Below, in pieces: positions 25,044-45,795 of a stretch of 64,000 nucleotides of DNA. The translations under genes and the position numbers were made by a program. The DNA is taken from assembly GCA_027382625.1 (NCBI GenBank), contig JAJKFJ010020752.1, forward strand, positions 248,001 to 312,000. The letters run 5' to 3'. Source of the stretch: Tetmemena sp. SeJ-2015 (lineage: Eukaryota > Ciliophora > Spirotrichea > Sporadotrichida > Oxytrichidae). How positions within the stretch are numbered: position 1 is the stretch's first letter; each line of letters starts with the position of its first letter. The notes beneath the pieces were generated by a model that worked only from the letters and a program-made list of their open reading frames with translations, did no database searches and had not been told where the DNA came from.

Positions 25044-25205
25044 CTGCCCGCTCCTCTGCCCAAGCCCCCTGTTGGGGGTCTTTCACCCGTTGGCCCCAAA
25101 TCTAGCGGGTTTCCGCCAGCTTGTCATGCCTCTTGGCGGGGCTTGGCAGGATTCCCCACCCATACGCCCGCGCAGGGACGGGCCCATTCGCCTGCGTAAT
25201 CGCCC

Positions 25206-26205
<1,000 letters not shown>

Positions 26206-26324
26206 GTCACGCTCCTTCTTGGCGCTGCGCCCAAGCGGGGGCTTGCGGGTTGCGCGCTTGCCTGCCATGGAAAGACGCGCGGCTCAAGCGGCAAGACAGC
26301 GCAGCGGCAGGAGAGCAGGCAAGC

Positions 26325-26849
26325 GTGGACATCTACGATCTCGTTCTGGATGTGATCGACCTGCGGTCGTTCTCGAACCTGTGGTACTGGATCGCGCTGG
26401 CGGTGCTGTGGTCTTCGGCCAGCCATTGGATCCTGGGCGTGCCGAATGACCTGATCCTGCGGGCGCGGCGTCAGGGCGGCGAGGCCGAACACGATGTCGA
26501 GATGATCGTGCAGGTCAATATGCGCCGCATCCTGGGCATTGCCCGCACCGCCGCCGTGCCGATTTTCGCCTTTGCGGGCTTTCTGCTGACCATGCTGGTC
26601 CTGATGGGATTCTGGTATGACATCGAATTCGCCCAGGCCGTGTTCTTTCTGGTCGCGCCGATGACCCTCGTCGGCTGGCTGTCGGTCTATACGGCGACCA
26701 GGATCGAGGGCGGCGAGGATCGCAGCGCCGCGCTGTACCGGCGCCTGATGATCCACCGCCGCCTGGTGCAGGTCCTGGGCATGGTGTCGATCTTCATCAC
26801 CGCGCTGTGGGGCATGTACCAGAACCTCAACATCTCGATTCTGAACTAG
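26325..26849 (+). CDS. Small integral membrane protein of Rhodobacteraceae (labelled 'component of SufBCD complex' in relatives)
   Basis: Intact 174-residue protein with a GTG start at 26325 after an AGGAG site. It has an N-terminal amphipathic part (VDIYDLVLDVIDLRSFSNLWYWIALAVLWSSASHW), a charged cytoplasmic loop with RARRQGGEAEHDVE, and two further membrane segments (VPIFAFAGFLLTMLVLMGFWY and AVFFLVAPMTLVGWLSVY). Relatives carry the name 'component of SufBCD complex', but nothing in this sequence or context supports an iron-sulfur role. It ends 3 bp before mfd, so the two are probably co-transcribed. Confidence 0.75.
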   Translation: MDIYDLVLDVIDLRSFSNLWYWIALAVLWSSASHWILGVPNDLILRARRQGGEAEHDVEMIVQVNMRRILGIARTAAVPIFAFAGFLLTMLVLMGFWYDIEFAQAVFFLVAPMTLVGWLSVYTATRIEGGEDRSAALYRRLMIHRRLVQVLGMVSIFITALWGMYQNLNISILN

Positions 26850-26852
26850 GCC

Positions 26853-29800
26853 ATGGCGGAGCGCATTCTTCTGGGCGGCGCCCCCGAGGGCCATGACGCC
26901 TTCCTTCTGGTGAAAGAGCTGGGGCGCGGCCATCCGGTGCTGCATGTCGCGCGCGACGACAAGCGGGCCGAGGCGATGCGCGCCGCGCTGGCGGTGGTGG
27001 CGCCGGATGTGGCCGTGCTGGACTTCCCGGCCTGGGATTGCCTGCCCTATGACCGCGTCTCGCCCAACCCGGAAATCGCCGCGCGCCGCATGGCGACGCT
27101 GGCCGCCCTGGCCGATGGCCTGCCTGGCGCCTTTGTCGTTCTGACCACGCTGAATGCGGTCACCCAGCGCATTCCGGCCCGGTCGGTGGTGCGCGAGGCT
27201 TCGTTCCGCGCCAAGGTCGGCGCAAGGGTCGACGAGTCGCGCCTGCGGGCCTTTCTGGCGCGGATGGGCTTTACCCCAGCCTCGACCGTCGCCGAGCCGG
27301 GCGATTTCGCCATACGGGGCGGTATCGTGGACATCTATCCGCCGGGGCCGGGCGGGCCGGTGCGGCTCGATTTCTTTGGCGATGTGCTGGACGGCGCGCG
27401 CCGCTTCGATCCCGAAACCCAGCGCACCATCGAGAAGCTGAGCCATGTCGAGTTCGCCCCGGTATCCGAGGTGGTGCTGGACGAGGCCGCGATTGCGCGT
27501 TTCCGGCAGAATTACCGGATGGAATTCGGCGCCGGCGGCTCGGGCGATCCCTTGTATGAGGCGGTGAGCGCGGGCCGCAAGCATCAGGGGATGGAACATT
27601 GGCTCCCCTTCTTCCATGAGCGGCTTGAGACCATTCTCGACTATCTGCCCGATGCGGCAGTGATGCTGGACGATCAGGTCCCCGCCATGCGCGGCGCGCG
27701 CTGGGATGTCGTCGAAGACGCCTATGCGGCGCGGTTCGAGGCGATGAATGACCGCGCGCGGCTGGACACGGTCTACAAGCCGGTGCCGGTGGGGCTGCTG
27801 TATCTGGACGAGGCGGGCTGGGAGGCGGCGGTCGCGCCGCATCGGCAAGTGCAGCTTTCCCCCTTGCCGCAACCCCCCGGACCGGGGGTTCTGGATGCGG
27901 GCGGGCGGGTCGGCCGCAATTTCTCGCCCGAACGCCAGCAGGAAAAGGTAAGCCTATTTGCGGCCTTGGCCGATCATGTTCGCGTTTTGCGCAAAGAGAC
28001 GCAGGTGGTGATCGCCTCGTGGTCCGATGGCGCGCGGGAACGCCTGAAGGGGCTGTTGACCGACCAGGATCTGGCGGCGGAGGAGATCGCCGATCTTCGC
28101 GCCGTGCGTCCGGCAAGGGTGGGCTGTTCCTGCTGGTCTGGGCGCTGGAGGCAGGCTTCACCGCGCCCGGCCTGGCAGTGGTGTCGGAACAGGACGTGCT
28201 GGGCGACCGGCTGGTTGCGAAACCCAAAAGCGCAAGAAAAGCCGACAACTTCCTGCGTGAGGTGGATACCCTCTCCCCGGCGATCTGGTGGTGCATGTCG
28301 AACATGGCGTCGGGGCCGCTATCTGGGGCTGGAAACCATCACCGCGCTGGGTGCCCCGCATGCCTGTGTGGCACTGGAATATGCCGAAGGCGCAAAGCTT
28401 TACCTGCCGGTCGAGAATATCGAACTGCTCAGCCGCTATGGCCATGAGGACGGGCTTCTGGACCGGCTGGGCGGCGGGGCGTGGCAGGCCAAGAAGGCCA
28501 AGCTCAAGGAGCGCATCCGCGAGATCGCCGAACGGCTGATGCGGGTGGCCGCCGAACGGTCGCTGCGCGCGGCCCCGGTGCTGGACGCGCCGCATTCGGC
28601 CTGGGAGGCTTTCGCGGCGCGCTTCCCCTATGCCGAGACTGATGACCAGCTGGCGGCGATTGCCGATGTGGTGGCCGATCTGGAAAAGGGCAGCCCAATG
28701 GACCGGCTGGTCGTCGGCGACGTCGGCTTCGGCAAGACCGAGGTTGCGATGCGCGCCGCCTTTGTCGCGGCCCTTGCCGGAATGCAGGTCGCCGTGATCT
28801 GCCCCACAACGCTCCTCGCCCGCCAGCATTACCGCAGCTTCGCCGAACGCTTCCGCGGCTTCCCCATACGGGTGCGTACGCTGTCGCGGTTCGTTTCGGC
28901 CAAGGAGGCGGCGGAAACCCGCAAGGGTCTTGCCGAAGGCGAGGTCGATATCGTCGTCGGCACCCATGCGCTCTTGGCCAAAGGCATCCGCTTCAAATCC
29001 CTCGGCCTGCTCATCATCGACGAGGAACAGCATTTCGGCGTCACCCACAAAGAGCGCCTGAAAGAGATGCGCTCGGAAATCCATGTGCTGACGCTGACCG
29101 CCACCCCCATCCCGCGCACCCTGCAACTCTCTCTGACCGGCGTGCGCGACCTTTCCATCATCGCCACCCCGCCCGTCGACCGCCTCGCCATCCGCACCTA
29201 TGTGTCTGAATTCGATACGGTCACCATCCGCGAGGCCCTGCTGCGCGAACATTATCGCGGCGGACAGAGCTTCTTCGTCACGCCGCGCATCGCAGACCTG
29301 CCCGATATCGAGGCGTTCCTGCCAGACCAGTGCCGAGGTGCGTTACCTGATCGCGCATGGCCAATTGGCGGCGGGGGAACTCGACGACCGGATGAATGCC
29401 TTCTACGACGGGCAATATGACGTGCTGCTGGCCACGACCATCGTGGAATCCGGCCTGGATATCCCGACGGCGAACACGATGATCATCCACCGCGCCGACA
29501 TGTTCGGCCTGTCGCAGCTTTACCAGATACGGGGGCGTGTGGGCCGGTCCAAGACGCGGGCCTATTGCTACCTGACCACCAAGCCGCGGATGCCGCTGAC
29601 GGCCCAGGCCCAGAAACGGCTGAAACTGCTGGGCAGCCTGGACAGCCTGGGTGCCGGTTTCAATTTAGCAAGCCATGACCTTGACTTGCGGGGCGCGGGT
29701 AATCTGTTGGGTGAAGAACAGTCCGGCCATATCCGCGAAGTGGGCTATGAACTGTACCAGCATATGCTGGAAGAGACGATCCAGAAGATCCGCTCGGGCG

Positions 29801-30292
29801 AGTTCGGGGCCTTTCAACGATTTCCGACGATTGGAGCCCGCAGCAAAACCCTGGGCGTCCCGGGTGATGATCCCCGAGGATTATGTCACCGGACCTGGAC
29901 ATACGCCTGGGTCTCTATCGCCGCCTGTCAGGTCTGACCACCAAGGTCGAGCTGGAGGGCTTTTGCCGCCGAGCTGATTCGACCGTTTCGGGGCCGATCC
30001 GAAAGAGGTGAACACGCTTCTGCTGATGGGTTGCGGAATCAAGGCGATGTGAAATGCGCGCGGGAATCTCGGGGCTGGATGCTGGCCGAAAAGGCGCGAC
30101 GATCCAGTTCCACAATGAAAGTTCGCCAATCCGGCCGGGTGGTCCCCTTCCTTAAGGATCAGGGTGGTGGGGCCCAAGGTGCAGGGCACCAAGATCGTGT
30201 GCGGGGCGAGATGCGGTCGACTCCGACCGCATCAAGGGCGCTTCGCCATAGCACGCGACCTGGCGAACGGGCCCCGCGCTGCAAAGCCTTAG
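26853..30292 (+). CDS. mfd: Transcription-repair coupling factor Mfd (frameshifted)
   Basis: DNA translocase that removes stalled RNA polymerase and recruits UvrA. UvrB-like N-terminal module (GGIVDIYPPG near residue 155). RNAP-interacting domain around VHVEHGVGRYLGLETI, broken near 28100 and 28290-28330. Helicase motifs: Walker A GDVGFGKTEVAMRAAF, DEEQHFGV (motif II), TATPIPRTLQLSL, then across a break near 29330 the second RecA fold (DVLLATTIVESGLDIPTANT, QIRGRVGRSK). The TRCF C-terminal domain is in pieces from 29820. The likely stop TAG at 30290-30292 overlaps the stop of the convergent transporter gene. Size of about 1145 codons is normal. Confidence 0.9.
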
Positions 30293-31514
30293 GCGCGTTT
30301 CTCAGCTTGGGCGTCAGGATCAGCGCCAAAGCGATGAACAGTGTCCACCCCATGACCAGCGGCACGGGCGTCCCGTCGAAGGCCTGTCCCACCGGCACGG
30401 CGATCACGATCGACAGCACGGTCGCGACCGAGGCGATGATCGACGAGGAAAAAGCCTGCGATATGGCCCAGAGGCTCCATCGCGATGGCGTTGAGATTGC
30501 CATAGTCAGGCTCATCGTCGAGAAGACCGAGACCTGCCCAGATCAGGTAGCGGGTGAAGAGGAAGGTCCAATCTGCCGGGTTTGAGAGGAGAATGGGCCA
30601 GGAAGACCGCGGTCAGCAGCAGTTCGACCGAAAGGGAGGTCTGGATCAAACCGCAACATGCCGACCTTGACCACCAGCTTCGCGTTCACCAGCGACGCCA
30701 GACTGGACAGTAGGGCGATGCCGCCAAACCAGAAGGGGAAGTGGCTGCCCTGATCGAAGAACTTCTCGAATATCCCCTGGATCGAAGAGATCGTCGAGAA
30801 GATCACCCCGGTCAGCAGGGCCTGCACCAGGATCGAATACAGCGCGATCGGTGTGTTCAGCATGACCTTTCCCGCCGCGACCAGGCCCGAGAAGGACAGG
30901 GGCTTGCGATCCTCGGGATGGATCGTCTCGGGCTGGCGCAGGCCCAGCCAGAGGATCGTGACCAGCGAGAAGACCAGATACATCAGGAAGATGTCGTGCC
31001 AGGACGCGACATAGATCACCGCCTGGCCCAGCATCGGCGCCAGTGCGGGCACCAGCATGAACACCATCATCGCATAGGACATGATGCTGGCCATCTGCCT
31101 TCCACTGTAAAGATCGCGCACCATCGCCAGCGAGACGGTGCGGGGCGCGGCGGCGCCGATGCCCTGGAAGAAGCGGGCCAGAAGCAGCATGTCCAGCGTG
31201 CCGGCGAAATAGCAGGCCACGGCGGCGGCGCAGTAGATCGCGGCCCCGGCCATGATCACCGGCTTGCGGCCGAAGGCATCCGACAAAGGTCCGGTCAGCA
31301 GCGTGCCAAAGCCCATGCAAGGAAGAGTCGCGATGAATCAGTTGCGCCGGTTCGGCGCGTCGGGGTGACGTCGCCTCGAATCTCGGGCGGCGGCCGCGCC
31401 GCTGGGCATCGAGATCGCGATGGTGGCAAACAGCATCGCGACCAGCGCGATGAATTCGCCGCGCGACAAAGGCGGCTTGGCCGAAGGGGAAAGCGTGTCG
31501 GCTTGGGCGGTCAT
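30289..31514 (-). CDS. Bcr/CflA-type multidrug efflux MFS transporter (frameshifted)
   Basis: Proton-driven 12-TM drug efflux protein. Start MTAQADTLSPSAKPPLSRGEFIALVAMLFATIAIS (first TM), then a damaged stretch near 31330-31410. The signature loop G-TLLTGPLSDAFGRKPVIMAGAAIY follows, then RFFQGIGAAAPRTVSLAMVRDLYSGRQMASIMSY, the Bcr/CflA type. Breaks occur near 30600-30660 and 30440-30530. The last TM (PVPLVMGWTLFIALALIL) is followed by a stop at 30289-30291. The start overlaps the stop of the DsbA-like gene as ATGA, suggesting a two-gene operon. Substrate unknown. Confidence 0.83.
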
Positions 31515-32130
31515 CTTGCGGAAAGGTCCTTGATCACGTCACCCCACAGATCGGGCGGCTGCGCGCTGAGACAACATATTGCTGGGCGATCAGAAAAGTC
31601 GGCACGGCGTTGACGCCCTTGTGCCGGGCATCGGCATCGCGCGCCTGGATGTCGCTGGCATCGGCATCGCTGGCCAGAAGGCGGGCGGTGGCTTCGCCAT
31701 CCATGCCGCATTCGGCGGCGACGGGCGGCCAGGACAGCGCGGTCGCCGATATCGCGCCCTTCGCTCCAATAGGCGGTGAAAAGTGCGGTGACGACTTCGG
31801 TCTGGCGGCCCTCGACCCCGGCCCAATGGATCAGGCGATGGGCGTCGAGCGTGTTGGGGATGCGGCGCGGCTTGTCGGGGTCCAGCGCGGCACCCGCCTT
31901 GCGGGCAACCTCGCGCAGCCGTTCATGCACGGCATCGACCTGGGCCTTGCCGCCGAACTTGCCTTCCAGCCAGGCGCGCTTGTCCACGCCTTCGCGCGGC
32001 ATGTCCGGGTTCAGCTGGAAGGGCTGCCAGGATCGCAGAAAGGATGTCGGGGTGGTCCGCCAGCACGGTCAGGTTCGCCTTGCCCACGAAACACAGGGGC
32101 AGGGTCGGAAAAAGACTTTCAAGCCGTCAT
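31511..32130 (-). CDS. DsbA family oxidoreductase, FrnE-like (frameshifted)
   Basis: Thioredoxin-fold protein of the DsbA/2-hydroxychromene-2-carboxylate isomerase superfamily. The N-terminal active-site region near 32060-32110 is damaged, so whether CxxC is present cannot be read with certainty, though CP-C-like codons are there. Helical insert: MPREGVDKRAWLEGKFGGKAQVDAVHERLREVARKAG, then PNTLDAHRLIHWAG and VTALFTAYWSEGRDIGDRAVLAA, typical of FrnE. The C-terminal thioredoxin half (NAVPTFLI, cis-proline) is across breaks at 31620-31720 and ends QPPDLWGDVIKDLSAR. Cytoplasmic, no signal peptide. Confidence 0.75.
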
Positions 32131-32156
32131 CGCCTTTTCGCTTTCTATGACGGTTC

Positions 32157-32985
32157 GGTCTGGTAGGGGCCGTCGAGCGCGCGGCGGTTCACCTGCCGTC
32201 GGCCGCGGGGAATCTCGGCAATGGCAGGACAGGCGCGCGGGCACCTTGTAGCCGCGCCAACCGTTCAGCCGCAAAGGCCTGGGCTGTGCATTTCCGGCAG
32301 AGTCCGCCGCATAGAGGAAACACGCGATTGATGCGTGGTGCCCGGCGCGGGCTCGACCCGCCACTGAGATATCGGTGAAGCGGGCAGGTCTGCAAAGGCT
32401 GCCACCTCGCGCGGCGAGACGACGCCCGCCCGGAATTCATATCTTCATCGGCCGGCCGTTGGTATGGAATCGCGCCGCATGATCCTGATGCACCAGACGC
32501 CGGTCGGGAACCAAGGGCTTGCGGCGCCCGGTGCCCTCATAGGACAGCATCAGGCCGGGATCGCTGTCCCACGGCAAGCTGGCACGGGTTTCTCCGGGGG
32601 TAGGGCCTCAGATCTTCACCAGCAAAACGCGATCCTGCGGCCCGCTGAGATAGGCGGTCGCGCCATCGGGGCGGTATGTCGGGGCAGGAGGAGACGAAAG
32701 GTGGACAATCTCGTCATCCCCAGGCGCCTCATGCACTTCGGCCGGTGCGCGGCCCGCCAGTCGGCGCGCAGGGCGGAGCAGGCTTCCTCCGGCCACAGAC
32801 ATGGCAGACGGGGCAGGCCGGCATATCGGCGCGCAGCAGGCGGCGCAGAAGCGTGAACCGTCCGAAATCGTCGCATCTGCGCGCAGGACCAGCGCAGATG
32901 GTCGGTCTGCACGAGCGCGGGGATCAGCGCGTCGCTCCCTCTCCGTCAGGGTCCATCGCATGGCCTCTGCCACATCCTATTTAGG
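32157..32985 (-). pseudogene. Unidentified coding remains, minus strand
   Basis: The minus strand carries coding-like pieces in several frames that do not join. They include MAEAMRWTLTERE at the right end, TYRPDGATAYLSGPQDRVLLVKI, SLPWDSDPGLMLSYEGTGRR with DRRLVHQDHAARFHTNGRPMKI after it, and LNGWRGYKVPARL near the left end. I do not recognise the family, and there may be more than one gene. The dense frame changes mean sequencing errors are at least as frequent here as in the neighbours. The function should be treated as unknown. Confidence 0.3.
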
Positions 32986-32999
32986 TCTAGTTGAAGGCT

Positions 33000-34629
33000 C
33001 CGGAATCTGCAGCGCTCCGTATGCAGTGTCGTCAATCTCTCCCTAGCTCCTTCTGGCATCATTGCCGCGCCATAATTGGCGCTATGGCATGGCTGCACCT
33101 GGCAAGCGGTGCGTGCTCCGGATTACCGCAGGTCGTATATTCTGACGAGACTTAGTCCCTTCGCTTTCAGCCATCGCCGAATGCAGTGTCGCATGGGCGC
33201 CTTCTGCCTCCCACGCTGGCCAGGTCGGCGCAGTGTCGGGGCCCGGGGCAGGGCGACGGCGGGCCAAGGGACCAGGCCGGGGGTATGGTGGCCGCCATAC
33301 GCTCTTCTCCTTTGTGATTCTCTCGTGCACCGCTGATGCCAGTGGCGAGGTCCCGTTCAACCTGCCCAGCCCTGCCGCCATTTCGCCGCGATAGGCGTTT
33401 GATAGCGGGTATGCCTCATAGGCGCTCAGCGAGCCTGGTCCGCTCGGCCGACAAACCCTTGCGCCATGTGCTTCTAGCGGCTCGGTCACCCCGAACTCTC
33501 GTCGCGGGTTCAGTGCGTTCTTCATCTCCATCGCGTTCTCGTGGGCCGTCAGGTGCAGCACTCAGGCCATGCGCCTACCTTGTCAGTCGTCGCCTGACCC
33601 TGGTCTCTTCCATGACATGGGGCTTTGTCTACTCACGGTTTGAATTCGTTCGGGATTCTCAGAGCCATATGGCCGCCTGCGAATTATCTGGTGCGAGACC
33701 GCCTCCTCGTCATCATAGCCTCGGCGGACGACTTGATTCTGTGTCCGCTGTGCGTATCCGTTGCTCGCATTGTAATCTTGGGCGGAACTCTCAGCGGATG
33801 TTGCGCCTGGAGGCTCGGATTGGTCCTCTCTTGATCGACCATTATCAATGCTCATATCGCGAAGCCATTCTGATGCGGTGCTTGCCTCGACCTGGTAGGC
33901 CGTCGCTATCTGTGCGATCGCTCGATTGGGCTCTCTGATTTGGTGGCATGCTCCCGTTCCGGTTTCGTGTGTCCGGCGTCGTGTCAGTCCCTGCGCGAGA
34001 CTGCGTGCGACGATCTTCGCTTTCCTTGCGTCCGCATCAACCCATGACCACTCATTGCTGCTTATCGCCATGTGCGTGTAATTGAAGAGCATTGTTTCGT
34101 GCAGAACGCCCGTCAACGGCGATGGTTCTGATTCTCTCTGGGCTCAGTTTCTTTGGACCTGGCGTCGAACAAGGTCTTTTTGGCGAACTCCTGCCAGCTG
34201 ACGGTGACCGATGGACGTGACGTCTTGCCTCTTATTACCTCTTGTCCATTTCGCAGCGACTCCGATGCGCTCTCTGGGAATAGAGTAAACTATAGCTTTC
34301 CTCGCAGCGACACCCGGCGCCCGTGCCTCGTTCCGGCCGCGCGGCGCGGTCATCTGTGCGGCATGTCCATGTGCCGCTGCTGGTTGTTTTGCGAGCGCGC
34401 GGGCTAGGTGCTGGTGCGCTTAGGGCTTCCGCTCAGCGGCCCTGACCTCCATCGGCTGTCCTGTATGACTCTCCGCTTTCATGCTGTCGATGGCTTTGCT
34501 CCGGTGATCGTTGCTTTTGCCTGGTTACTGCGCCTAGTCTTCGCTGCGGTCCATGCCATGCCCATGCGGGCTCTTGCTCACTCGCCTGTGCGTCTTGACA
34601 GGTGATGAAATGTTGACCTTCCGCTCCGC
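33000..34629. other. Degenerate sequence without recognisable genes
   Basis: GC is still near 60% at 33.06 kb (38 of 60 bases in the line starting 33,061), but no frame on either strand holds a recognisable domain for more than a few residues. A minus-strand frame at 33,082-33,561 has some natural-looking composition (for example SNAYRGEMAAGLGRLNG) but no identifiable family. It is probably alphaproteobacterial sequence with a very high error rate. No RNA gene, repeat or mobile element was seen. Confidence 0.5.
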
Positions 34630-34724
34630 GTCATGGCTAGATGTCGTTTGCGCCAACGGCGGAAAAGATCAGGGCCGCGGGTCTGCCCGAGGCTTTGGCG
34701 CAACGCCTGATGGCAGGGGAATAG
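34630..34724 (+). pseudogene. C-terminal tail of an unidentified alphaproteobacterial gene
   Basis: A short clean frame reads SFAPTAEKIRAAGLPEALAQ, then RLMAGE and TAG at 34722-34724, four bases before the kinase start. Upstream sequence is unreadable, so the protein cannot be identified. It is likely the gene preceding the kinase in the source genome. Confidence 0.4.
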
Positions 34725-34728
34725 GCCG

Positions 34729-34930
34729 ATGCTGCGACCGCATGAGGGATTGGTGATCGACGGCTTCACCCTGGGCGCACAGCTTCACAAGGGCGGCTTC
34801 GCAACCATCTGGGACGTGACCCATCCCGAGATCACCATGCCCATGGTGATGAAGGTACCGACGATCCTGGATGGTCGGATGACGGGCCTACCATTCGTGT
34901 GTTTCGATCTGGGTCGAGCAGTATGCATCA
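34729..34930 (+). pseudogene. Start of a Rhodobacterales Ser/Thr protein kinase (truncated by unreadable sequence)
   Basis: The frame starting at ATG 34729 reads LRPHEGLVIDGFTLGAQLHKGGFATIW, with a glycine-rich loop, and then MVMKVPTILDG with the invariant lysine of protein kinases. This matches the N-terminus of a Ser/Thr kinase conserved in Rhodobacterales. Similarity fades after about 34,890 and the rest of the kinase domain cannot be found. It is useful because it shows that the left-hand genome continues at least to here. Confidence 0.65.
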
Positions 34931-36149
34931 TGCCTGCGCCTGTGTCGTTATGGCCGCAATGCTGCCGCGGGGTCTATTCGCTGAGCGGCTGCATTTCCAC
35001 TTGTCTCCTCTCCCCTCTCTCTGTTCTATACTCTGCTGACCGAACTGTCATTTCTCAGGTGGCTGTAGGTTCCTTCTTCTAAAGCCTTCCCTGGGTCCGC
35101 TCTCTTGCTCGCTGCGTGACCTGATCGAGATCATGGTCCCGCGTCTATGGTTCGAGTGCTCTCGGTGGTTATCTCTTATTCTTCACCGCCAGTCACGGTT
35201 ACTCTCCATCTGGACTTAAGCCTCGTTGGTGAACTTTCTGCTCAAGGCCTCAGTCGGCGAGTACTGTTGCCCTGGTTCGTATCGGTCTGCTCACTCTCCT
35301 TCTTTGGATGACGCTTCTGTTTGCTCGATCTTTCTGGTCGAGGAACTTCCCAGACTCTCCCGTACTTTGGGCATATCCTTTCTCGCGGCCGAGCTAGTAT
35401 CTGCGCTGCCTGCCTCGACGATTTCGCTGCTGCGACATTTTCGCACTTGTCGCTCCTGATCCTATTGTCCTGGGCCTCGCCGCTTTTTCCTTTGGCAGAC
35501 CCTCGAACAATGCTGTAGCGGGTGTCGTCTGGCGCCGGCTGTTGTCGCTCGATCCTCTCGTGCCCAGCGTCTTGGGCGCTGCTTTGCCTCGGGCATGCTC
35601 GGTACATGCTCGCTTGCAAGTCACCTGAAGTGCGCTGTGACTCTCGGTCGTATCCGCTGCTCGCGCATCCCATCGACAGCTGGCTGACAATGGCTCTCTT
35701 GAATTTTATTTTTTCTTTTTTCGGGATCAATCTCTACGTGTGCGGTGAAGCTGACACGACCGCGCCGCATGCTTTAAGCGGCACAGTCTGTTACAGTGTT
35801 CGATCGCTGTCGCGTGTTCTCTTCTTTGTCGTGCGCGTGCTTTCTTCATCTGATACAGATTAAATTCTACCCTGCCCGAGCACGGTTTCTGCTGCATTCA
35901 TACCGCGGCCCACTTGCGTCTGATCATTATCGTCGTCTCGCTGGTCGATCTTTCCCTCTTGAGGGTGAGCAGCTGGGTCTTCTCAGTGTCGTATCTACAG
36001 CCTTTTCTCGCGCTCAGCGTGTCGGCGCCATGTCGCGCGACCGATGCCCACAGGCCGCATCGCCTCGCTCGGGAACGTGGACTCTAAATAACTGGTCACG
36101 GCACGCAATTGACGCTGCATGGGGAAGGCTGCCTTCCTGCCTAAATCCA
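34931..36149. other. Degenerate sequence of falling GC, no gene recognised
   Basis: No coding similarity was seen on either strand. GC in single 60-base lines falls from about 57% at 35,221 to about 40% at 36,241, with a growing excess of C and T over A and G on the given strand. The gradual change, without any gene boundary, suggests unreliable base calls more than a natural element. Confidence 0.5.
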
Positions 36150-36950
36150 TCTGCAATGTCTTTTCCTTCTTTTCTTCTCTTTTCTCTCCTTCTTTTTTCT
36201 TCTTCTACTTTTGGTCCTCCTCTTATTTGCTTTCTTCTCCATCTTTGCATCTGCTTTTTCTCAATTTCTTTTTCCTCCTTCTCTCTCTTCTTCCTCGCCT
36301 TAGCTTCCTTATCTTTAGCTGCTTGCAATCGCATTTACTTCTCACTGCAGTCCTTCATCTATAGCAGCTCAAATTGTCTCTTTCTCTCTCTTCTCTTTCT
36401 TCTTCTTCTTTCTTTTCTTCTTTTCTCTCTTAAGTATATATTTTGAGACATCATTTATTACTTGAGTCACTTCTTTTCTTTTTCTTGTTGTTCCATTTCT
36501 TTTCTCTTCTTTCATTCATCCTTTTCTTTTTTCTAACATTTGTTATAATTGAGATGTCTTTTTTTCTTCTCTTTTTTTTTTTTCTCTTTCTCTCTTTCTC
36601 TTTCTCCCATAAGATTTAGTTATGGAACGAACTTCTCTTCTCCTCCATTTTCCTTTTTTTTTTTTTTCATTTTTCTTTTTTTTTTTTTCTTTCTTTTTTT
36701 TTCCGAGTCAGCTCCATCTGCTCCTCCATCTATCCTCTCTTTTCTTTCTCTTCTCTTCCTCCAATTCTCTTTCCGTAGATTCGCTTAAATTTTCTCCTTT
36801 CTCTTTTTCTTTCTTTCTTTATTTTCTCTTTTTCTTTTTTCTTTTTCTTATTTTCTTTTTTGTTTTTATTTCTCTCTTTCTCTTTTCTTCTTTTTTCTTT
36901 TTTTTTTTATTCCCTATTAACTCCCGGCTCCACTTCGTTGAATGCCCGAT
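36150..36950 (+). repeat. Long C/T-only-like low-complexity tract
   Basis: About 800 bases made almost wholly of T and C in irregular short runs. The line starting 36,841 has 47 T or C-rich positions with only 1 G, and GC is 20%. There is no fixed repeat unit, so it is not a microsatellite. Open frames here are only stretches of Phe, Ser and Leu. A real polypyrimidine tract this long is not expected in either source genome, and an artefact of low-quality reads is the preferred reading. Confidence 0.6.
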
Positions 36951-36955
36951 CACTT

Positions 36956-36989
36956 TTTTCTCTTCTTTCTTTTTTTCGGTATGATCAAG
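36956..36989. repeat. 34-bp direct repeat, copy 1
   Basis: Identical to 37,294-37,327, 338 bases away. It ends in TCGGTATGATCAAG. This copy lies in the low-complexity zone, while the other is within the lysine/glutamate-rich linker of the isoaspartyl peptidase. On the minus strand both encode DHTEKKKEE. Confidence 0.85.
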
Positions 36990-37023
36990 TGGTTCTTTGA
37001 CTTCTTCTTTTCTTTTTACTTCT

Positions 37024-37162
37024 GTTAATCCGTCTCCTCAGCACTCTGTGACTTTTTATTTGCTACTTCTGTGATCTCTGTTACCTTTCCAACCCATCTT
37101 GGATTTCTTTCCTTTAGTTCGATTGAAATTTGACTTATAAGTAGAGCAAAGTCTGAGTGATC
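37024..37162. other. Sequence replacing the C-terminus of the isoaspartyl peptidase; probable join zone
   Basis: On the minus strand the peptidase frame stays open here for another 46 codons to a stop at 37,025, but the residues (DHSDFALLISQISIELKERN and onward) do not resemble the family. The expected TGG motif and following sheet after NLAAGTS are missing. The break in homology at about 37,163 marks the right-hand edge of the join between unrelated sequences. Confidence 0.6.
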
Positions 37163-37888
37163 AGATGTTCCGGCAGCGAGGTTTCCAAACTGGTCCAGGG
37201 CCACACAACCTACAGTACCGAATTTCTTGCCTTCCACAAACATATTTTCTTCTTCTTTCGAGATCCTTCCTACCTTCTTAGGCACCTCTTTTGTTTTCTC
37301 TTCTTTCTTTTTTTCGGTATGATCAAGCTCTACTTTTTCCTCTTTCAAGGCATTTTGGAGGGCCTTCCAGCGGGTTTCGGTATAAAAATAACTCGGGTCA
37401 ACAATGGTCTCTCCCTGCAGTTTGGCAAACTCCTCCGCCCCTTTTCCAATGAGCATTACATGAACTGATTTATCCATTACTTTTCTGGCCGTAGAAATCG
37501 GGTTTCTGATGGTCGTCACTCCCGCAATTGCCCCGGCTTTCAGGATGGCACCGTCCATGATTGAGGCATCCATTTCGTTTTTTCCTTCGTGGGTAAACAC
37601 CGCTCCTTTGCCCGCATTAAAGAGCGGAGAGTCCTCCATGACATGAATGGCCGCCTCTACGGCATCTAAACTTGTGCCTCCCTTTTGCAGGACCGCATAA
37701 CCCGTTCTCAACGACTCTTCCAGCTTTTCCCTGTAGGCTTTTTCCTTCTCGGGACTCATGTTTTTACGGGTTATTGTACCGGCTCCGCCATGGATAACGA
37801 GGGTGATTTTATCCTTGGCAGATTGCCCGAAAATGCTCTGGGAATAGGTGGCAGTAAAAAACAAAGCCAGTAGGACTAACTTTTTCAT
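37163..37888 (-). CDS. Isoaspartyl peptidase/L-asparaginase, C-terminus lost
   Basis: Secreted Ntn-hydrolase that cleaves isoaspartyl dipeptides and asparagine. Signal peptide MKKLVLLALFFTATYSQSIFGQ, then ITLVIHGGAGTITR, the alpha-subunit blocks SLDAVEAAIHVMEDSPLFNAGKGAVF and EMDASIMDGAILKAGAIAGV, and a Lys/Glu-rich autocleavage linker. The nucleophile threonine is in KFGTVGCVALDQFGNLAAGTS. Homology ends there (residue about 242 of an expected 340 or more), so the beta subunit is missing. The loss is most likely due to the chimeric join and not to natural truncation. Confidence 0.85.
37294..37327. repeat. 34-bp direct repeat, copy 2
   Basis: Copy within the isoaspartyl peptidase gene, identical to 36,956-36,989. 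The pair brackets the point near 37,163 where peptidase homology stops. Confidence 0.85.
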
Positions 37889-37907
37889 TTGGTTTGACGT
37901 TTAGATA

Positions 37908-37939
37908 TTGGTACTAAATTACAAGATACTTTAGTTTCT
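37908..37939 (+). promoter_or_regulatory. Bacteroidota-type promoter of the epimerase gene
   Basis: TTGG (37908-37911), 20-nt spacer, TAGTTTCT (37932-37939) resembles the TTTG/TAnnTTTG promoter of Bacteroidota. The start codon at 37951 is only about 12 nt from its end, so the leader would be very short. Confidence 0.45.
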
Positions 37940-37950
37940 CTAAGCATAAA

Positions 37951-38772
37951 ATGAAAACAATTTCAATATTAGGGTGTGGATGGCTTGGTCTTCCTCTGGC
38001 AAGCTCCCTCACCAGGGCAGGATGGTCCGTCAAAGGCTCAACCACCAGGGCAGAAAAAATACCCGAACTTCTTGAAAACAAGATCGAGCCTTTTCAGATT
38101 ACTTTTAATCCTGATCTGATACCGGGTGAAGGTGCCGGCTTTTTTGACTCTCGGGTTTTACTCGTCAACTTTCCCCCGCGGCTCCGGCAACACAGTGAAG
38201 ATTTTCATTTACAGCAAATTGAGGCTCTTATCCACGAAATAGAAAAAAGCACTGTCCGGGACATTGTTTTTATCAGCTCAACTTCCGTTTACCAGGATCT
38301 GAACAGGGAAATGACTGAAGAAGATGCAGACCCCGACCATGTGATCATCAAGGCAGAAAATAAATTATGGGATTTTGCGACGGGTTCAGAAAGAAGGGTC
38401 ACCATCCTGAGGTGTGGAGGCCTGATGGGGTATGACCGGATTCCATGCAAGTATTATTCAGGAAAGAAAGACCTCACCAACGGGCAGACACCCGTCAATT
38501 ATATTCACCAGGACGATGTGGTTAATGCCATCCTTACGGTAATCATCAAAAATGTCTGGAATGACCGCTTCAACCTGGTTGCTCCGGGGCATCCGGTCAG
38601 AAAAGACGTGATGACAGACTGCTCAGGCAAGACCTTATATACTGCACCGGAATTCATAGAAAGTACAAAACCAGAATCCTTTAAAATCATCAGTTCCGCT
38701 AAGTTTCTGAATGCCACCCAATACAAATTCAAATATCCTGATCCGCTCGGGTTTGAATATTATCTGCAGTAG
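37951..38772 (+). CDS. NAD(P)-dependent epimerase/dehydratase-like protein
   Basis: Intact 273-residue protein of the extended SDR group, of the kind related to YeeF. The N-terminus MKTISILGCGWLGLPLASSL carries the nucleotide-binding glycine motif (GCGWLG). FISSTSVYQDLN resembles the SDR active-site strand with Ser and Tyr. RVTILRCGGLMGYDR and VNYIHQDDVVNAIL are the conserved C-terminal blocks. Cytoplasmic, substrate unknown. It lies in opposite orientation to the peptidase upstream and converges with purB, whose stop is 2 bp away. Confidence 0.8.
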   Translation: MKTISILGCGWLGLPLASSLTRAGWSVKGSTTRAEKIPELLENKIEPFQITFNPDLIPGEGAGFFDSRVLLVNFPPRLRQHSEDFHLQQIEALIHEIEKSTVRDIVFISSTSVYQDLNREMTEEDADPDHVIIKAENKLWDFATGSERRVTILRCGGLMGYDRIPCKYYSGKKDLTNGQTPVNYIHQDDVVNAILTVIIKNVWNDRFNLVAPGHPVRKDVMTDCSGKTLYTAPEFIESTKPESFKIISSAKFLNATQYKFKYPDPLGFEYYLQ

Positions 38773-38773
38773 A

Positions 38774-40117
38774 TCAGATACCCACGTAATTAAACGGCGA
38801 GATTACCCTCAGTTCGGCTTTGATCGCTTCTGAAACATCCAGGGTTTCGATAAAGTCCCTGATGGTTTTTTCGGTGATCTTTTCATTTTTGCGGGTCAGG
38901 GCTTTCAGGGCCTCGTAAGGTTTCGGATAAGCTTCGCGTCTCAGTATTGTCTGGATCGCTTCTGCCACAACAGCCCAGTTTTCATCAAGATCAGCCAGAA
39001 TGGCTTCCTGGTTCAATTCCAGCTTGTTTAAGCCTTTCAATAAAGACTTAAGGGCAATAACCGTATGGGCAAAAGGCACGCCCAGATTCCGAAGTACCGT
39101 GGAGTCGGTCAGGTCCCGCTGAAGTCTCGAAATAGGTAATTTGGCAGCAAAGTGTTCGAAAAGAGCGTTGGCAACACCAAGGTTTCCTTCCGCATTTTCA
39201 AAATCGATGGGATTGACTTTATGAGGCATGGCAGAAGAACCGATTTCTCCTTCCTTGATTTTCTGTTTGAAATAATTCATGGAAACATACTGCCAGACAT
39301 CCCTTGCCAGGTCAATCAGGATGGTATTGATCCTTTTTATATTGTCAGAATAGGCTCCTAAGTTGTCGTAATGTTCTATTTGTGTGGTTTTCTGGCTTCT
39401 GTTCAGACCCAGCGTTTCGTTGACAAATTTATTGCCGAACTCCTGCCAGTTGTATTGCGGATAGGCCACATGGTGAGCGTTGAAATTACCGGTAGCTCCA
39501 CCGAATTTGGCAGAAAAAGGAATGGTTTTCAGCAGGTCAAGTTGCGAAGAAAGTCTTTCTGTAAAGACCTCTATTTCTTTCCCGAGTCTTGTCGGAGAAG
39601 CGGGCTGTCCGTGTGTTTTGGCCAGCATCGGTATGGCCGCCCAGTCGCCGGCTAACTCTACGAGCCTTCCCACCACAGCAAAAAGAACCGGCAAAACTTC
39701 AGCGTCCATCGCTTCTTTCAAAGACAAAGGAATAGATGTATTATTAATGTCTTGTGATGTCAGACCAAAGTGAATGAATTCTGAAAACCCTCCGATGCCG
39801 AGGTCTTCAAACCTCTTCTTGATGAAATACTCCACCGCTTTGACATCATGGTTGGTTGTCTTCTCAATTTCCTTGATTTCCAGGGCATTATCTTCAGAAA
39901 ACTCCGTGTATATTTTTCTTAATTCCGGAAACGCCGAGCTATCGAAGTCCGAAAGCTGCGGAAGCGGCATTTCACATAAAGCTATGAAATATTCTATTTC
40001 GATCCGCACACGGTAATGTATCAAACCGAACTCAGAAAAGTACGGGGCAAGGTTTTCAACCTGACGACGATAGCGGCCATCTATCGGAGAGACGGCATTT
40101 AGAGAATTAAGAGACAT
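38774..40117 (-). CDS. purB: Adenylosuccinate lyase
   Basis: Tetrameric lyase acting twice in purine synthesis (SAICAR to AICAR, adenylosuccinate to AMP). Start MSLNSLNAVSPIDGRYRRQ at 40117; a longer in-frame extension to 40183 crosses the promoter region and is unlikely. Blocks: TSQDINNTS, KTHGQPASPTRLGKE with the general-acid histidine, and the superfamily signature GSSAMPHKVNP near residue 285. 447 residues, normal for the Bacteroidota form. Divergent from the aquaglyceroporin gene. Confidence 0.95.
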   Translation of the reverse strand: MSLNSLNAVSPIDGRYRRQVENLAPYFSEFGLIHYRVRIEIEYFIALCEMPLPQLSDFDSSAFPELRKIYTEFSEDNALEIKEIEKTTNHDVKAVEYFIKKRFEDLGIGGFSEFIHFGLTSQDINNTSIPLSLKEAMDAEVLPVLFAVVGRLVELAGDWAAIPMLAKTHGQPASPTRLGKEIEVFTERLSSQLDLLKTIPFSAKFGGATGNFNAHHVAYPQYNWQEFGNKFVNETLGLNRSQKTTQIEHYDNLGAYSDNIKRINTILIDLARDVWQYVSMNYFKQKIKEGEIGSSAMPHKVNPIDFENAEGNLGVANALFEHFAAKLPISRLQRDLTDSTVLRNLGVPFAHTVIALKSLLKGLNKLELNQEAILADLDENWAVVAEAIQTILRREAYPKPYEALKALTRKNEKITEKTIRDFIETLDVSEAIKAELRVISPFNYVGI

Positions 40118-40135
40118 AATTTGTTTATTAAATCG

Positions 40136-40165
40136 CAAAATTAGTAAATTGCTTTTACAATCAAC
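40136..40165 (-). promoter_or_regulatory. Bacteroidota-type promoter of purB
   Basis: On the minus strand, GTTG (40165-40162), 18-nt spacer, TAATTTTG (40143-40136). The downstream box matches TAnnTTTG fully, and the upstream box is a weak match. It lies 19 nt from the purB start. Confidence 0.45.
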
Positions 40166-40185
40166 CTTATTACGTAAATACAATT

Positions 40186-40884
40186 ATGCAAACTTCGACA
40201 TTTATGGGCGAACTTATGGGGACGCTCGTACTTATTCTTCTTGGTGACGGTGTCGTTGCCAATGTCTTACTAAAAGGAACTAAAGGACACAACGGAGGAC
40301 TTATCGCCATCACCACCGCCTGGGCTTTTGCCGTCGCCATGGGGGTGTTTGTGGCTCAAAAATTCGGAAGTGAAGCCGCACATCTCAACCCCGCATTAAC
40401 CATTGCCTTTGCATTTCAGTCGGGAGACTGGTCCAATGTCCTTCTCTTTATTTCCGCACAGATGACCGGGGCATTTCTCGGAGCTACCATCGTCTGGCTG
40501 TTCTATTTCCCGCACTGGCAGGTAACAGAAGACAAAGCCCTGAAACTGGGCGTATTCTGTACCGCTCCGGCCATCAGGCACATTCCCTCCAACCTCTTTG
40601 GTGAAATCATCGGAACCATCGTTTTATTTGTCGGGGTATCTTCAATTTACGGAGAAACCGGCTCAGGACTTGCTCCCTACCTGGTAGGTGTGCTGGTGTG
40701 GGTCATCGGGCTTTCCCTGGGAGGTACTACCGGTTATGCTATTAATCCGGCCAGAGACCTGGGGCCAAGACTGGCTCATGCCATTTTGCCTATCGCCGGA
40801 AAAGGTGGAAATGACTGGGCTTATTCATGGATTCCTGTGGCGGGCCCCATCATAGGCGGAGTGATCGGAACACTTTTCTTCTGA
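40186..40884 (+). CDS. MIP-family channel (glycerol facilitator/aquaporin)
   Basis: Membrane channel of 232 residues with six helices and two half-helices. Both NPA boxes are present: HLNPALT near residue 67 and AINPARDLGPR near residue 187. The Asp after the second NPA and the long LGPR extension are features of glycerol-type channels, so glycerol or related polyol uptake is likely. Intact and followed by xylA, which has its own promoter. No glycerol kinase is nearby. Confidence 0.87.
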   Translation: MQTSTFMGELMGTLVLILLGDGVVANVLLKGTKGHNGGLIAITTAWAFAVAMGVFVAQKFGSEAAHLNPALTIAFAFQSGDWSNVLLFISAQMTGAFLGATIVWLFYFPHWQVTEDKALKLGVFCTAPAIRHIPSNLFGEIIGTIVLFVGVSSIYGETGSGLAPYLVGVLVWVIGLSLGGTTGYAINPARDLGPRLAHAILPIAGKGGNDWAYSWIPVAGPIIGGVIGTLFF

Positions 40885-40910
40885 TCATTTCTTAATTAAT
40901 TTTAAAAATA

Positions 40911-40942
40911 TTTGCAGAATACTTTTTATAGGTGTACATTTG
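40911..40942 (+). promoter_or_regulatory. Bacteroidota-type promoter of xylA
   Basis: TTTG (40911-40914), 20-nt spacer, TACATTTG (40935-40942). This is a full match to the TTTG-N19-21-TAnnTTTG consensus of the Bacteroidota primary sigma factor, 73 nt before the start codon. Confidence 0.75.
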
Positions 40943-41015
40943 ACACTTATAATTCGAAATGTTCAAGTTTAACTGACAAACAGCATATTCTAAAAATAAA
41001 AAAAACTAAACTCCT

Positions 41016-42356
41016 ATGAGCAAATTAACCGTCACCCTGGGTGAAAAAGAGTATTTCCCGTTCATAAAAGGCCCTGTGGCTTTTGAAGGACGCGAGTCTG
41101 ATAATCCGCTTGCTTTCAAATTTTATGATGCCAACAGACTGGTAGGCGGAAAAAGCATGAGAGACCATCTTCGTTTTGCCATTGCTTACTGGCATACCTT
41201 CTGCGGAACAGGTGGTGATCCTTTTGGTCCGGGAACGAAGGCTTTCCCTTGGGATGCCAACAAAAACCCTTTGCAGGCTGCTCATGATAAAATGGATGCT
41301 GCGTTTGAGTTTTTCACAAAAATTGATGCCGATTACTGGTGTTTCCATGATGTGGACATGTCTCCTGAAGGAAACTCCCTTTCTGAATATGAAAGCAACC
41401 TGAGGAAAATGGTAGACTATGCCAAAGCCAAACAAAATGCTTCAGGTGTAAAATTACTTTGGGGAACAGCCAATTTGTTCTCTAACCCGAGATACATGAA
41501 CGGTGCTTCTACCAACCCTAATTTCCAGGTGGTGGCACATGCCGGTTTACAGGTCAAAAACTGTATCGATGCTACCATCGAACTGGGTGGTGAAGGGTAC
41601 ACTTTCTGGGGTGGTCGTGAAGGGTACATGAGCCTTCTGAACACCAACACCAAAAGAGAACTGGACAACCTGGGTAAATTCCTGAACATTGCCAAGGATT
41701 ACGGTCGTAAAAACGGTTTCAAAGGCAGTTTCTACATTGAACCGAAACCAGCTGAACCATCGAAACACCAATATGACTTTGATGTTCAGACGGTGATCGG
41801 GTTCCTTAACCAACACGGTCTGGAGAAAGATTTCTCTATGAACGTAGAGGTAAACCACGCCACTCTGGCCGGACATACTTTTGCTCACGAGCTTCAGATG
41901 GCTGCTGATGCAGGTATGTTGGGATCTATCGATGCCAACCGCGGAGATTACCAGAACGGATGGGATACCGACCAGTTCCCTGTTGATCTGTATGAATTGA
42001 CTGAAGCTTTATTGGTGATCATTGAGGCGGGCGGATTCAAAACCGGTGGTGTTAACTTTGACGCAAAGACCCGTCGTAACTCGACAGATCTTGAAGATAT
42101 ATTTATTGCTCACATCGGCGGTATGGACGTATTTGCCAGAGCCCTGCTTGTGGCCTATGACATTCTTGAGAAATCACCGTACAAAAAGATGCGTTCCGAC
42201 CGCTACGCTTCTTTTGACAGCGGAAACGGGCTGAAATACACCAAAGGCGAACTAAGCCTTGAAGACCTGGTCAAAATCGCCCATGAAACCGGCGAACCTG
42301 CCCAGATCAGTGGTAAACAGGAAAGATATGAGCAAATTCTGAATCAGTACATCTGA
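41016..42356 (+). CDS. xylA: Xylose isomerase
   Basis: Metal-dependent isomerase of D-xylose and D-xylulose, of the class II (about 440-residue) type. Catalytic motif [13 protein letters not shown] near residue 110, metal-binding [15 protein letters not shown] near 245 and the family signature [15 protein letters not shown], then [17 protein letters not shown]. 446 residues, intact. No xylulose kinase or transporter is adjacent, so this is a stand-alone gene with its own promoter and terminator. Confidence 0.96.
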
Positions 42357-42373
42357 TAAAAGGAATTCTCAGT

Positions 42374-42411
42374 AAAAGCCTCCGCCGGATCACACCGGGG
42401 GAGGCTTTTGC
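42374..42411 (+). terminator. Terminator of xylA
   Basis: AAAAGCCTCC...GGAGGCTTTT hairpin, with CGCCGG/CCGGGG extending the stem, followed by a T-rich stretch. It lies 17 bases after the xylA stop. Confidence 0.8.
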
Positions 42412-42438
42412 TTTTTAAGGCAGATTATACTCCTCCTG

Positions 42439-42469
42439 TTTTCAAAATTCAATAATTCCCTTATTTTTG
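42439..42469 (+). promoter_or_regulatory. Bacteroidota-type promoter of the amidohydrolase gene
   Basis: TTTT (42439-42442), 19-nt spacer, TATTTTTG (42462-42469), close to the TTTG/TAnnTTTG consensus, 24 nt before the ATG at 42494. Confidence 0.5.
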
Positions 42470-42493
42470 ATCAATCAATTCAATACCTGCTTC

Positions 42494-44074
42494 ATGAACA
42501 AAATCTTTACGCTCTTATTATTCATCAGCCTCTCTTCATTCGGCCAGGTTACCAAAGCTCCCAATCGGGCAGAAGGAGACGGGCCTTACAACAAACTCAT
42601 TATCCGTGGGGTAACACTGGTCAACAGCACCGGGGCTCCGCCCATCGGCCCCATCGACATTGTAGTAGAGAAAAACCGCATCAAAGAAATCAGACAGGTA
42701 GGAAATCCGGGTGTACCGATTGATCCCAAAAGAAGACCCAAAGCCGAGGCCGGAGATAAAGAACTGGACTGCACAGGCATGTACCTGATGCCGGGTTTTA
42801 TTGATATGCATGGTCACACAGGCGGGCGGGCACAGGGCACCCCGGCAGAATATGTCTATAAGCTGTGGATGGCTCATGGCATCACCACCATCCGCGAGCC
42901 CTCGTCCATGAATGGCCTCGACTGGACCCTGGAACATAAGAAAAAAAGCAGTCTGAATGAAATCACCGCCCCAAGGATCATGGCTTACACGGCTTTTGGT
43001 ATGGGCTCTGATCAGGCCATTACCACCCCTGAGCAAGCCCGTGAATGGGTGAGAAACAATGCAAAAAAGGGAGCGGACGGCATCAAGTTTTTCGGAGCAG
43101 AGCCGGAAGTTTTCAGAGCGGCTTTGGAAGAAAACAAAAAACTGGGGCTTCGATCTGCCTGTCACCACGCCCAGCTGGAAGTAGCGAGAATGAATGTGCT
43201 GGCCACAGCCAAAGCCGGGCTGACTTCTATGGAACACTGGTATGGATTACCCGAAGCCCTGTTTGACGACAGAACCCTGCAAAATTTCCCGGCCGATTAT
43301 AACTACAACAACGAACAACACCGTTTTGAAGAAGCCGGAAAACTCTGGAAACAAGCCGCTGAGCCGGGCTCTGCCAAGTGGTACCAGGTCATGGACGAAC
43401 TGCTGAAACTTGATTTTACCCTTGACCCGACTTTCAATATCTATGAAGCCAACCGCGACCTGATGATGACCCGCAGGGCTGAATGGCACGATGAATACAC
43501 CTTGCCTTCGCTCTGGAGATTTTATGGACCGAGCCGGATCTCACACGGATCGTACTGGCTCAACTGGGGAACAGAACAGGAAATCCAGTGGAAGGAGAAT
43601 TACAGGATATGGATGCGTTTTGTGAACGAATATAAAAACAAAGGCGGCAGGGTAACTACGGGTTCCGACTCAGGGTTTATTTATCAGCTTTATGGTTTTG
43701 CCTACATCCGTGAACTGGAATTACTGCGTGAAGCGGGGTTCCATCCGCTGGAAGTCATCCGCTCTGCGTCCATCAAAGGAGCTGAGGCCCTGGGATTAGA
43801 CAAAGAAATCGGTTCTGTTGAAATCGGCAAGCTGGCAGATTTTGTAATCACCCAGGAAAACCCTCTCTCTAATTTCAAAACCCTGTATGGCACAGGAGCC
43901 ATTAGTGTTACTGAAAACAATGAGGTGGTCAGAATCGGTGGCGTGAAATACACCGTTAAAGATGGTATCGTTTATGATGCCAAAAAGCTGCTGGAAGACG
44001 TGAAAGTCATGGTGAAAAAAGCCAAGGAAGAAGAGAATTTTCAAATGACACAACCTGGAATGGGCAAAAAATAA
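42494..44074 (+). CDS. Secreted metal-dependent amidohydrolase
   Basis: 526-residue amidohydrolase-superfamily enzyme with signal peptide MNKIFTLLLFISLSSFG. Metal and active-site residues: HGH in GFIDMHGHTGG near residue 103, GIKFFGAE near 197, HHAQ near 219, EHWYG near 245 and the C-terminal aspartate in TTGSDSGF near 398, followed by HPLEVIRSASIKGAEALG of the imidazolonepropionase/prolidase-like subgroup. Substrate unknown. Start at 42494 is chosen for the signal peptide. The next gene starts 2 bp after the stop, so the two form an operon. Confidence 0.87.
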   Translation: MNKIFTLLLFISLSSFGQVTKAPNRAEGDGPYNKLIIRGVTLVNSTGAPPIGPIDIVVEKNRIKEIRQVGNPGVPIDPKRRPKAEAGDKELDCTGMYLMPGFIDMHGHTGGRAQGTPAEYVYKLWMAHGITTIREPSSMNGLDWTLEHKKKSSLNEITAPRIMAYTAFGMGSDQAITTPEQAREWVRNNAKKGADGIKFFGAEPEVFRAALEENKKLGLRSACHHAQLEVARMNVLATAKAGLTSMEHWYGLPEALFDDRTLQNFPADYNYNNEQHRFEEAGKLWKQAAEPGSAKWYQVMDELLKLDFTLDPTFNIYEANRDLMMTRRAEWHDEYTLPSLWRFYGPSRISHGSYWLNWGTEQEIQWKENYRIWMRFVNEYKNKGGRVTTGSDSGFIYQLYGFAYIRELELLREAGFHPLEVIRSASIKGAEALGLDKEIGSVEIGKLADFVITQENPLSNFKTLYGTGAISVTENNEVVRIGGVKYTVKDGIVYDAKKLLEDVKVMVKKAKEEENFQMTQPGMGKK

Positions 44075-44076
44075 TC

Positions 44077-45657: not shown

Positions 45658-45745
45658 ATCCCCTGATTATCAAAATATTGTACGATAAAACCTTCCTGGT
45701 AAAAAAAACTTCTCACCTGTCTGGTTAAAAAAAATCCCTCAAAAA

Positions 45746-45777
45746 TTTGCGTAGCCAAATAACTACACTTAAATTTG
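45746..45777 (+). promoter_or_regulatory. Promoter of the arsR-SRPBCC-doxX operon
   Basis: TTTG (45746-45749), 20-nt spacer, TAAATTTG (45770-45777), a full match to the Bacteroidota consensus. Transcription should start near 45784, leaving only about a dozen bases before the start codon. Confidence 0.75.
45751..45766. promoter_or_regulatory. ArsR-type operator, copy 1 (inside promoter spacer)
   Basis: GTAGCCAAATAACTAC: arms GTAG/CTAC, identical to copy 2 except one base. It lies wholly between the two promoter boxes. Confidence 0.65.
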
Positions 45778-45792: not shown

Positions 45793-45795
45793 AGA

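What the first reader, a model, noticed from the sequence alone, without database searches (positions are those of the whole stretch)
33000..37163. Two unrelated genomes joined in one window
Left of about 34.93 kb every identifiable gene is of Rhodobacteraceae type; right of 37.163 kb every gene and promoter is of Bacteroidota type. The right-most left-genome landmark is the kinase island at 34.73-34.93 kb. The left-most right-genome landmark is the isoaspartyl peptidase, which loses homology in mid-domain at 37,163. Between them there is only unreadable sequence and no integrase, transposase, tRNA or attachment site. Horizontal transfer of whole operons with unchanged codon use on both sides is far less likely than a chimeric assembly.
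Basis: partly seen in the sequence, partly recalled or inferred. Interest (0 to 1): 0.85.

Follow-up and report, generated by a model that had tools for sequence, protein, structure and literature searches.

The report
Chimeric contig patched with host scraps
Two unrelated bacterial genomes are joined in one contaminant contig of a eukaryotic (ciliate-like) genome assembly by badly read sequence patched with short scraps of the host's own DNA, so the join is almost certainly an assembly error and not a biological event.

Summary
The join is really in the record and is almost certainly an assembly artefact. The window is bases 248001-312000 of a 317,930-base contig in a 146-Mb, 5,213-contig assembly whose genes point to a ciliate-type code. 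Left arm: Rhodobacter/Tabrizicola-like, GC 62-71%. Right arm: Bacteroidota, nearest named peptidase relatives Spirosoma/Siphonobacter/Dyadobacter, GC 40-52%. The "unreadable" zone can be read in three parts. (1) 32.1 to about 35.4 kb (weakly 35.7) is mostly Rhodobacter DNA in its proper order but badly read; from 34.8 kb the extra bases relative to relatives are mainly T and C. (2) 36.19-37.16 kb is T/C-rich noise holding ten 37-117 nt pieces found elsewhere in the host assembly and one 34-nt copy of the right-arm gene, several edge to edge; one shuffled control found none. (3) At 37,163/37,164 an otherwise normal peptidase gene begins abruptly, just before its conserved TGG. No tRNA, phage match or confident Pfam domain lies in the zone. 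So three genomes meet here, not two. The step that laid the scraps (short-read polishing or hybrid correction) is inferred; raw reads were not available.

The parts
1..32100 (.). Left arm: Rhodobacter/Tabrizicola-like bacterial DNA with frameshifts (Mfd-type gene 26853-29988 split between two frames near 29.3 kb)
32101..35700 (.). Badly read left-genome DNA, in order with relatives for 32.1-33.3 and 34.2-35.4 kb, weakly to 35.7 kb; no consistent place found for about 33.6-34.2 kb; extra bases mainly T/C from 34.8 kb
34656..34945 (+). Clean island: end of a metallophosphatase-type gene and start of a protein kinase gene, in the collinear place in 5 of 80 relatives' loci
36194..36401 (.). Three abutting pieces found on host contigs C3221 (36194-36244), C1744 (36243-36344) and C1931 (36345-36401)
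36421..36469 (+). 49-nt piece found on host contig C2454, 96% identity
36583..36631 (.). 49-nt piece found on host contigs C4789 and C2680, 100% identity
36681..36811 (.). Pieces found on host contigs C3260 (36681-36738, 90%, a many-copy sequence), C1961 (36722-36774, 100%) and C3722/C3007 (36775-36811, 100%)
36956..36989 (+). 34-nt exact copy of 37294-37327, the Lys/Glu-coding linker of the right-arm peptidase gene
36990..37163 (+). Two overlapping pieces found on host contigs C566 (36990-37054, 100%) and C1736 (37047-37163, 95%), ending exactly where the right arm begins
36402..36955 (.). T/C noise between the pieces: 36402-36420, 36470-36582, 36632-36680, 36812-36955 (85-100% pyrimidine)
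37164..37888 (-). Isoaspartyl peptidase/L-asparaginase gene of the right arm, cut before its conserved TGG; native Lys/Glu-rich linker
37164..64000 (.). Right arm: Bacteroidota DNA (continues to the contig end, 317,930)

Best explanation
A contaminant contig made by assembly error. Shown: left-genome DNA runs on in order to about 35.4-35.7 kb while it becomes badly read; the last kilobase is pyrimidine noise holding short pieces that exist elsewhere in the host assembly; the right arm begins sharply at 37,164. Inferred: one poor long read or read tail carried the left genome into T/C noise; the assembler bridged that noise to the Bacteroidota contig, perhaps through the T/C-rich linker of the peptidase gene (37.29-37.33 kb); short reads, mostly of the host, were then laid on the pyrimidine noise by a polisher or hybrid corrector, which turned it into a patchwork of real scraps. 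I put the chimera at about 0.96 and the short-read patching step at about 0.7.
For: GC step and different relatives of the arms. Collinear decay of the left genome, T or C being 139 of 177 extra bases against L042 in 34801-35699 versus 89 of 151 in 31500-33298. Ten host pieces plus a 34-mer cover 645 of 970 bases of 36194-37163; source and window agree at only 4-13 of 30 bases outside each piece; all ten show their pyrimidine-rich strand although five sources are on each strand. One shuffled control: no match; right-arm DNA: only itself and the 34-mer. Right edge inside a gene. Precedents for chimeric reads in assemblies and for polishing that adds sequence without read support: PMC7500977 (passages).
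Against: No raw reads, coverage or unpolished contig were seen. 33500-36100 has no second copy in the assembly, so patching is shown only for the last kilobase. Non-triplet indels against relatives show no steady rise before 32 kb. In the last block tested (35725-35993 against L039) the window is shorter than the relative and only 14 of 25 extra bases are T/C, against a smooth trend. No source was found for 325 of the 970 bases. T/C enrichment of extra bases is partly expected from the window's own composition there (0.60-0.65 pyrimidine).
Confidence: 0.85

Rival explanations
1. A physical chimera in the tube: DNA of the two bacteria was joined by ligation or whole-genome amplification, or two molecules were read as one, and a single poor read crossed the join; patching followed.
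For: PMC7500977 (passages) reports misassembly from single very long chimeric reads. Decay into noise fits one poor read.
Against: Nothing here separates a chimeric read from a false bridge between two contigs; the pieces still need a later patching step.
Confidence: 0.1
2. Real horizontal transfer or fusion of a large block between Rhodobacteraceae and Bacteroidota.
For: Both arms lie in one contig.
Against: No tRNA, phage match or confident Pfam domain in the zone; host pieces fill the join; the gene at the edge is cut mid-motif; the arms keep different GC.
Confidence: 0.01
3. A real molecule formed in the ciliate: bacterial DNA joined by error-prone end joining with templated insertions of host DNA.
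For: Pieces abut exactly or overlap by 2, 8 or 17 nt, as templated insertions can (recalled).
Against: All ten pieces show their pyrimidine-rich strand and lie in pyrimidine noise, and T/C excess is also seen inside collinear Rhodobacter DNA, which points to a reading problem.
Confidence: 0.02

Closest known systems
Chimeric long-read misassembly (e.g. the Canu cases in PMC7500977, passages seen)
   Same: Two loci that do not belong together are fused in one contig; the join has no biological signature.
   Different: Here the fused parts are two contaminant bacteria, and the join is filled with scraps of a third genome.
Polishing artefact adding unsupported sequence (numt flanks in PMC7500977, passages seen)
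   Same: Sequence not belonging to the locus is written into the consensus.
   Different: There mean 15 nt of mainly A or T; here pieces of 37-117 nt from many host contigs on T/C noise. That a polisher did it here is inferred.
Bacterial contamination of ciliate assemblies (PMC9797194, PMC10901763, passages seen)
   Same: Both papers describe removing bacterial contigs from ciliate assemblies.
   Different: This contig was left in and is itself a fusion; the assembly is not shown to be one of theirs.

Membership tests
Chimeric misassembly | Arms of different organisms | tested here: met
Chimeric misassembly | Join without a biological boundary; gene cut at the edge | tested here: met
Chimeric misassembly | Coverage break, few or no spanning reads | not testable with these tools
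   no raw reads held
Short-read patching of a noisy consensus | Short pieces identical to other contigs, foreign outside their edges | tested here: met
   one shuffled control
Short-read patching of a noisy consensus | Pieces absent from the unpolished contig; clipped reads end at piece edges | not testable with these tools
   no reads or intermediate assembly held
Horizontal transfer by a mobile element | Integrase, transposase, tRNA site or phage sequence at the edge | tested here: not met
   attachment repeats were looked for only in 31-40 kb
Ciliate nuclear code in the host assembly | In-frame TAA/TAG at conserved Gln | tested here: inconclusive
   For: 3 of 5 in-frame TAA/TAG of a beta-tubulin frame align with Gln; one stop of the SAe gene aligns with Gln beside a one-residue gap. 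Not decisive: a tubulin frame on C1854 has no in-frame stop.

The most novel reading that the evidence does not exclude
A real molecule: bacterial DNA taken up by a ciliate was end-joined with at least ten short templated insertions of host DNA, and the T/C-rich stretch is part of that product rather than reading noise.
Probability: 0.02. Interest if true: 0.8.

Novelty: not a real feature. Interest (0 to 1): 0.2.

Why it matters
Such a contig can seed false claims of gene transfer between phyla, or of bacterial genes in a ciliate genome. The patchwork is also a mark one can screen for: short pieces of many other contigs, on their pyrimidine-rich strand, beside a stretch that decays in place.

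Tried and rejected
Comparing 31.0-36.2 kb with the rest of the window, ten sampled stretches of the contig and the fetched host pieces gave 52 mostly weak rows against 33 for the reversed sequence, whose best E-value (7.8e-6) was lower than any of the 52: nothing usable. The own-assembly search with 33.5-36.1 kb found only itself. A tblastn of relatives' frames without composition correction was too noisy, real and reversed zone both giving dozens of rows, and its output was cut; the block alignments were used instead. The idea of an inverted duplicate misread by a nanopore (PMC7229812; abstract and passages seen) was dropped because the decayed part is forward and collinear with relatives; 'pyrimidine', 'thymine' and 'poly-T' do not occur in that paper's held main text. 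The contig ends look clean (300-base steps of the first 3.0 kb and last 2.9 kb: pyrimidine 0.40-0.56). Naming the host failed: 18S rRNA, COX1 (35, 42, 48, 66) and bacterial 16S (70) searches of the own assembly did not complete; a paper search by contig number and size gave 6 unrelated papers. PMC9797194 (passages) reports germline assemblies of 237 Mb/28,446 contigs and 172 Mb/17,655 contigs, so as printed neither is this one. Rfam search of the window and ten host loci: no match.

Full report
What the record is. The window is bases 248001-312000 of contig C1832 (317,930 bases) in an assembly of 146,216,379 bases and 5,213 contigs, so of eukaryote size. Its genes point to a ciliate-type code: a beta-tubulin frame on C3370 has five in-frame TAA/TAG, 3 of 5 aligned with Gln of a solved tubulin, and in the ribosomal SAe gene on C3557 a stop aligns with a Gln of P0124, beside a one-residue gap. 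P0124, the only one of the 120 listed relatives that carries a EukProt label, is 84% identical. A tubulin frame on C1854 has no in-frame stop, so the code is likely, not proved. The species was not found. The window is thus bacterial sequence inside a eukaryotic assembly.

The two arms. GC is 62-71% in every 2-kb step up to 31001-33000 and 40-52% from 36001 on. Nine sampled stretches further left have GC 64-68%, the right end of the contig 42%. The left Mfd-type protein finds Rhodobacter, Tabrizicola and other Rhodobacterales-type loci (80 kept of 578 confirmed; best identity 75%). The right-arm peptidase finds 7,998 relatives; the named ones among the 120 listed are Bacteroidota genera (their phylum is recalled). 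Of ten right-arm proteins scanned, three pass the curated cut-off of an NCBIfam model over nearly their full length: adenylosuccinate lyase, xylose isomerase, catalase/peroxidase. The left arm is poorer: Mfd is split between two frames near 29.3 kb, and 1 to 59 non-triplet indels per kb separate it from six relatives, without a steady trend before 32 kb (some may be real differences).

The decaying part. Sixteen 300-base blocks from 31.5 kb on were aligned to four relatives, each against 20 dinucleotide shuffles. 31500: on line in 3 of 4 (z 26-29; the L039 target began too late). 31800: 4 of 4 (z 30-37). 32100: 4 of 4 on line but weak (z 1.7-4.7). 32400 and 32700: 4 of 4 (z 9.5-19.6). 33000: 3 of 4 on line (L042 z 5.7, the others 1.4 and 1.6). 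33300: L045 alone (z 1.3). 33600-34200: no consistent place. 34200: 4 of 4 near line (z 0.5-5.8). 34500, 34800, 35100: 4 of 4 (z 6.5-26). 35400 and 35700: L042 and L039 on a drifting line (z 4.2, 1.5; 2.8, 2.7), L045 and L041 off it. 36000: none. The clean island 34656-34945 sits in the collinear place in 5 of 80 loci and matches the end of a metallophosphatase-type gene and the start of a kinase gene. Against L042, T and C make up 89 of 151 extra window bases in the six blocks 31500-33298, 15 of 25 in 34520-34800, and 139 of 177 in the three blocks 34801-35699, where the window is also 139 bases longer than the relative. Part of that T/C share is expected from the local composition (pyrimidine 0.60-0.65). 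The next block, 35725-35993 against L039, does not follow the trend (window shorter; 14 of 25 T/C).

The patchwork. DNA 36100-37300 searched in its own assembly gave 42 rows: two on C1832 itself and 40 on other contigs (104 candidates, 40 scored, so a lower bound). I held DNA for 22 of those 40 rows. Local blastn printed 22 rows of at least 35 nt and over 88% identity (weaker rows dropped, five of the 22 are one T/C microsatellite). One source per place gives ten pieces of 51, 102, 57, 49, 49, 58, 53, 37, 65 and 117 nt at 89.7-100% identity. Some abut (36344/36345, 36774/36775), some overlap by 2, 17 or 8 nt. Outside its edges each source agrees with the window at 4-13 of 30 bases. Five sources are on each strand, yet all ten pieces are pyrimidine-rich on the window's + strand (0.62-0.92) and more so than their source locus. 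An eleventh piece, 36956-36989, is an exact copy of 37294-37327 in the right-arm gene and abuts the next piece at 36989/36990. Together they cover 645 of 970 bases; the four gaps are 85-100% pyrimidine. Controls: one dinucleotide shuffle of 36100-37163 found nothing (the tool warns that an empty answer alone shows little); 37164-39000 found only itself and the 34-mer; 33500-36100 only itself. The search skips simple repeats. Several pieces come from sequences with more than one copy in the host. Two of the source loci, L002 and L003, have GC 31% and 36% and no frame over 88 codons in 3.1 kb, unlike either bacterial arm.

The right edge. The peptidase matches P0001 (359 residues, 98% identity over 84% of the query) up to ...NLAAGTS and leaves it before TGG. 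Its Lys/Glu-rich linker, T/C-rich on the + strand, is native, since P0001 has it too. That linker may be what tied the noise to this place; this is inference.

Mechanism. Most likely one poor long read or read tail carried the left genome into T/C noise, the noise was bridged to the Bacteroidota contig, and short reads, mostly of the host, were laid on it by a polisher or hybrid corrector. Pieces of at most 117 nt fit short reads (inference). Shown: loss of quality in place, host scraps, sharp right edge. Inferred: bridging read, tool, platform. Precedents for chimeric reads and for polishing that adds unsupported sequence: PMC7500977 (passages). Searches for chimeric contigs, T/C-rich noise and false short-read correction (listings only) showed no title or abstract start that describes such a patchwork, which is no proof that none is in print.

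Verdict. The zone is not a biological feature. What is added is that most of it can be read, and that a third genome takes part.

Noticed in passing
window 54893-58714: A 1273-residue right-arm frame joins DUF6807, DUF7133, HEAT repeats and a cytochrome c domain.
   Followed up: no
L004 (G000:C3557:288-3503): The host ribosomal SAe gene is interrupted, and residues about 36-75 of its relative have no match between the matched parts; introns, or germline-type interruption as in ciliate micronuclei, are both possible.
   Followed up: partly
L034 (G000:C1917:16600-17050): A host contig holds a natural CTT/TC microsatellite of about 250 bases that resembles the T/C noise.
   Followed up: no
window 29200-29988: The Mfd-type gene of the left arm continues in another frame, a sign of an uncorrected indel.
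   Followed up: partly
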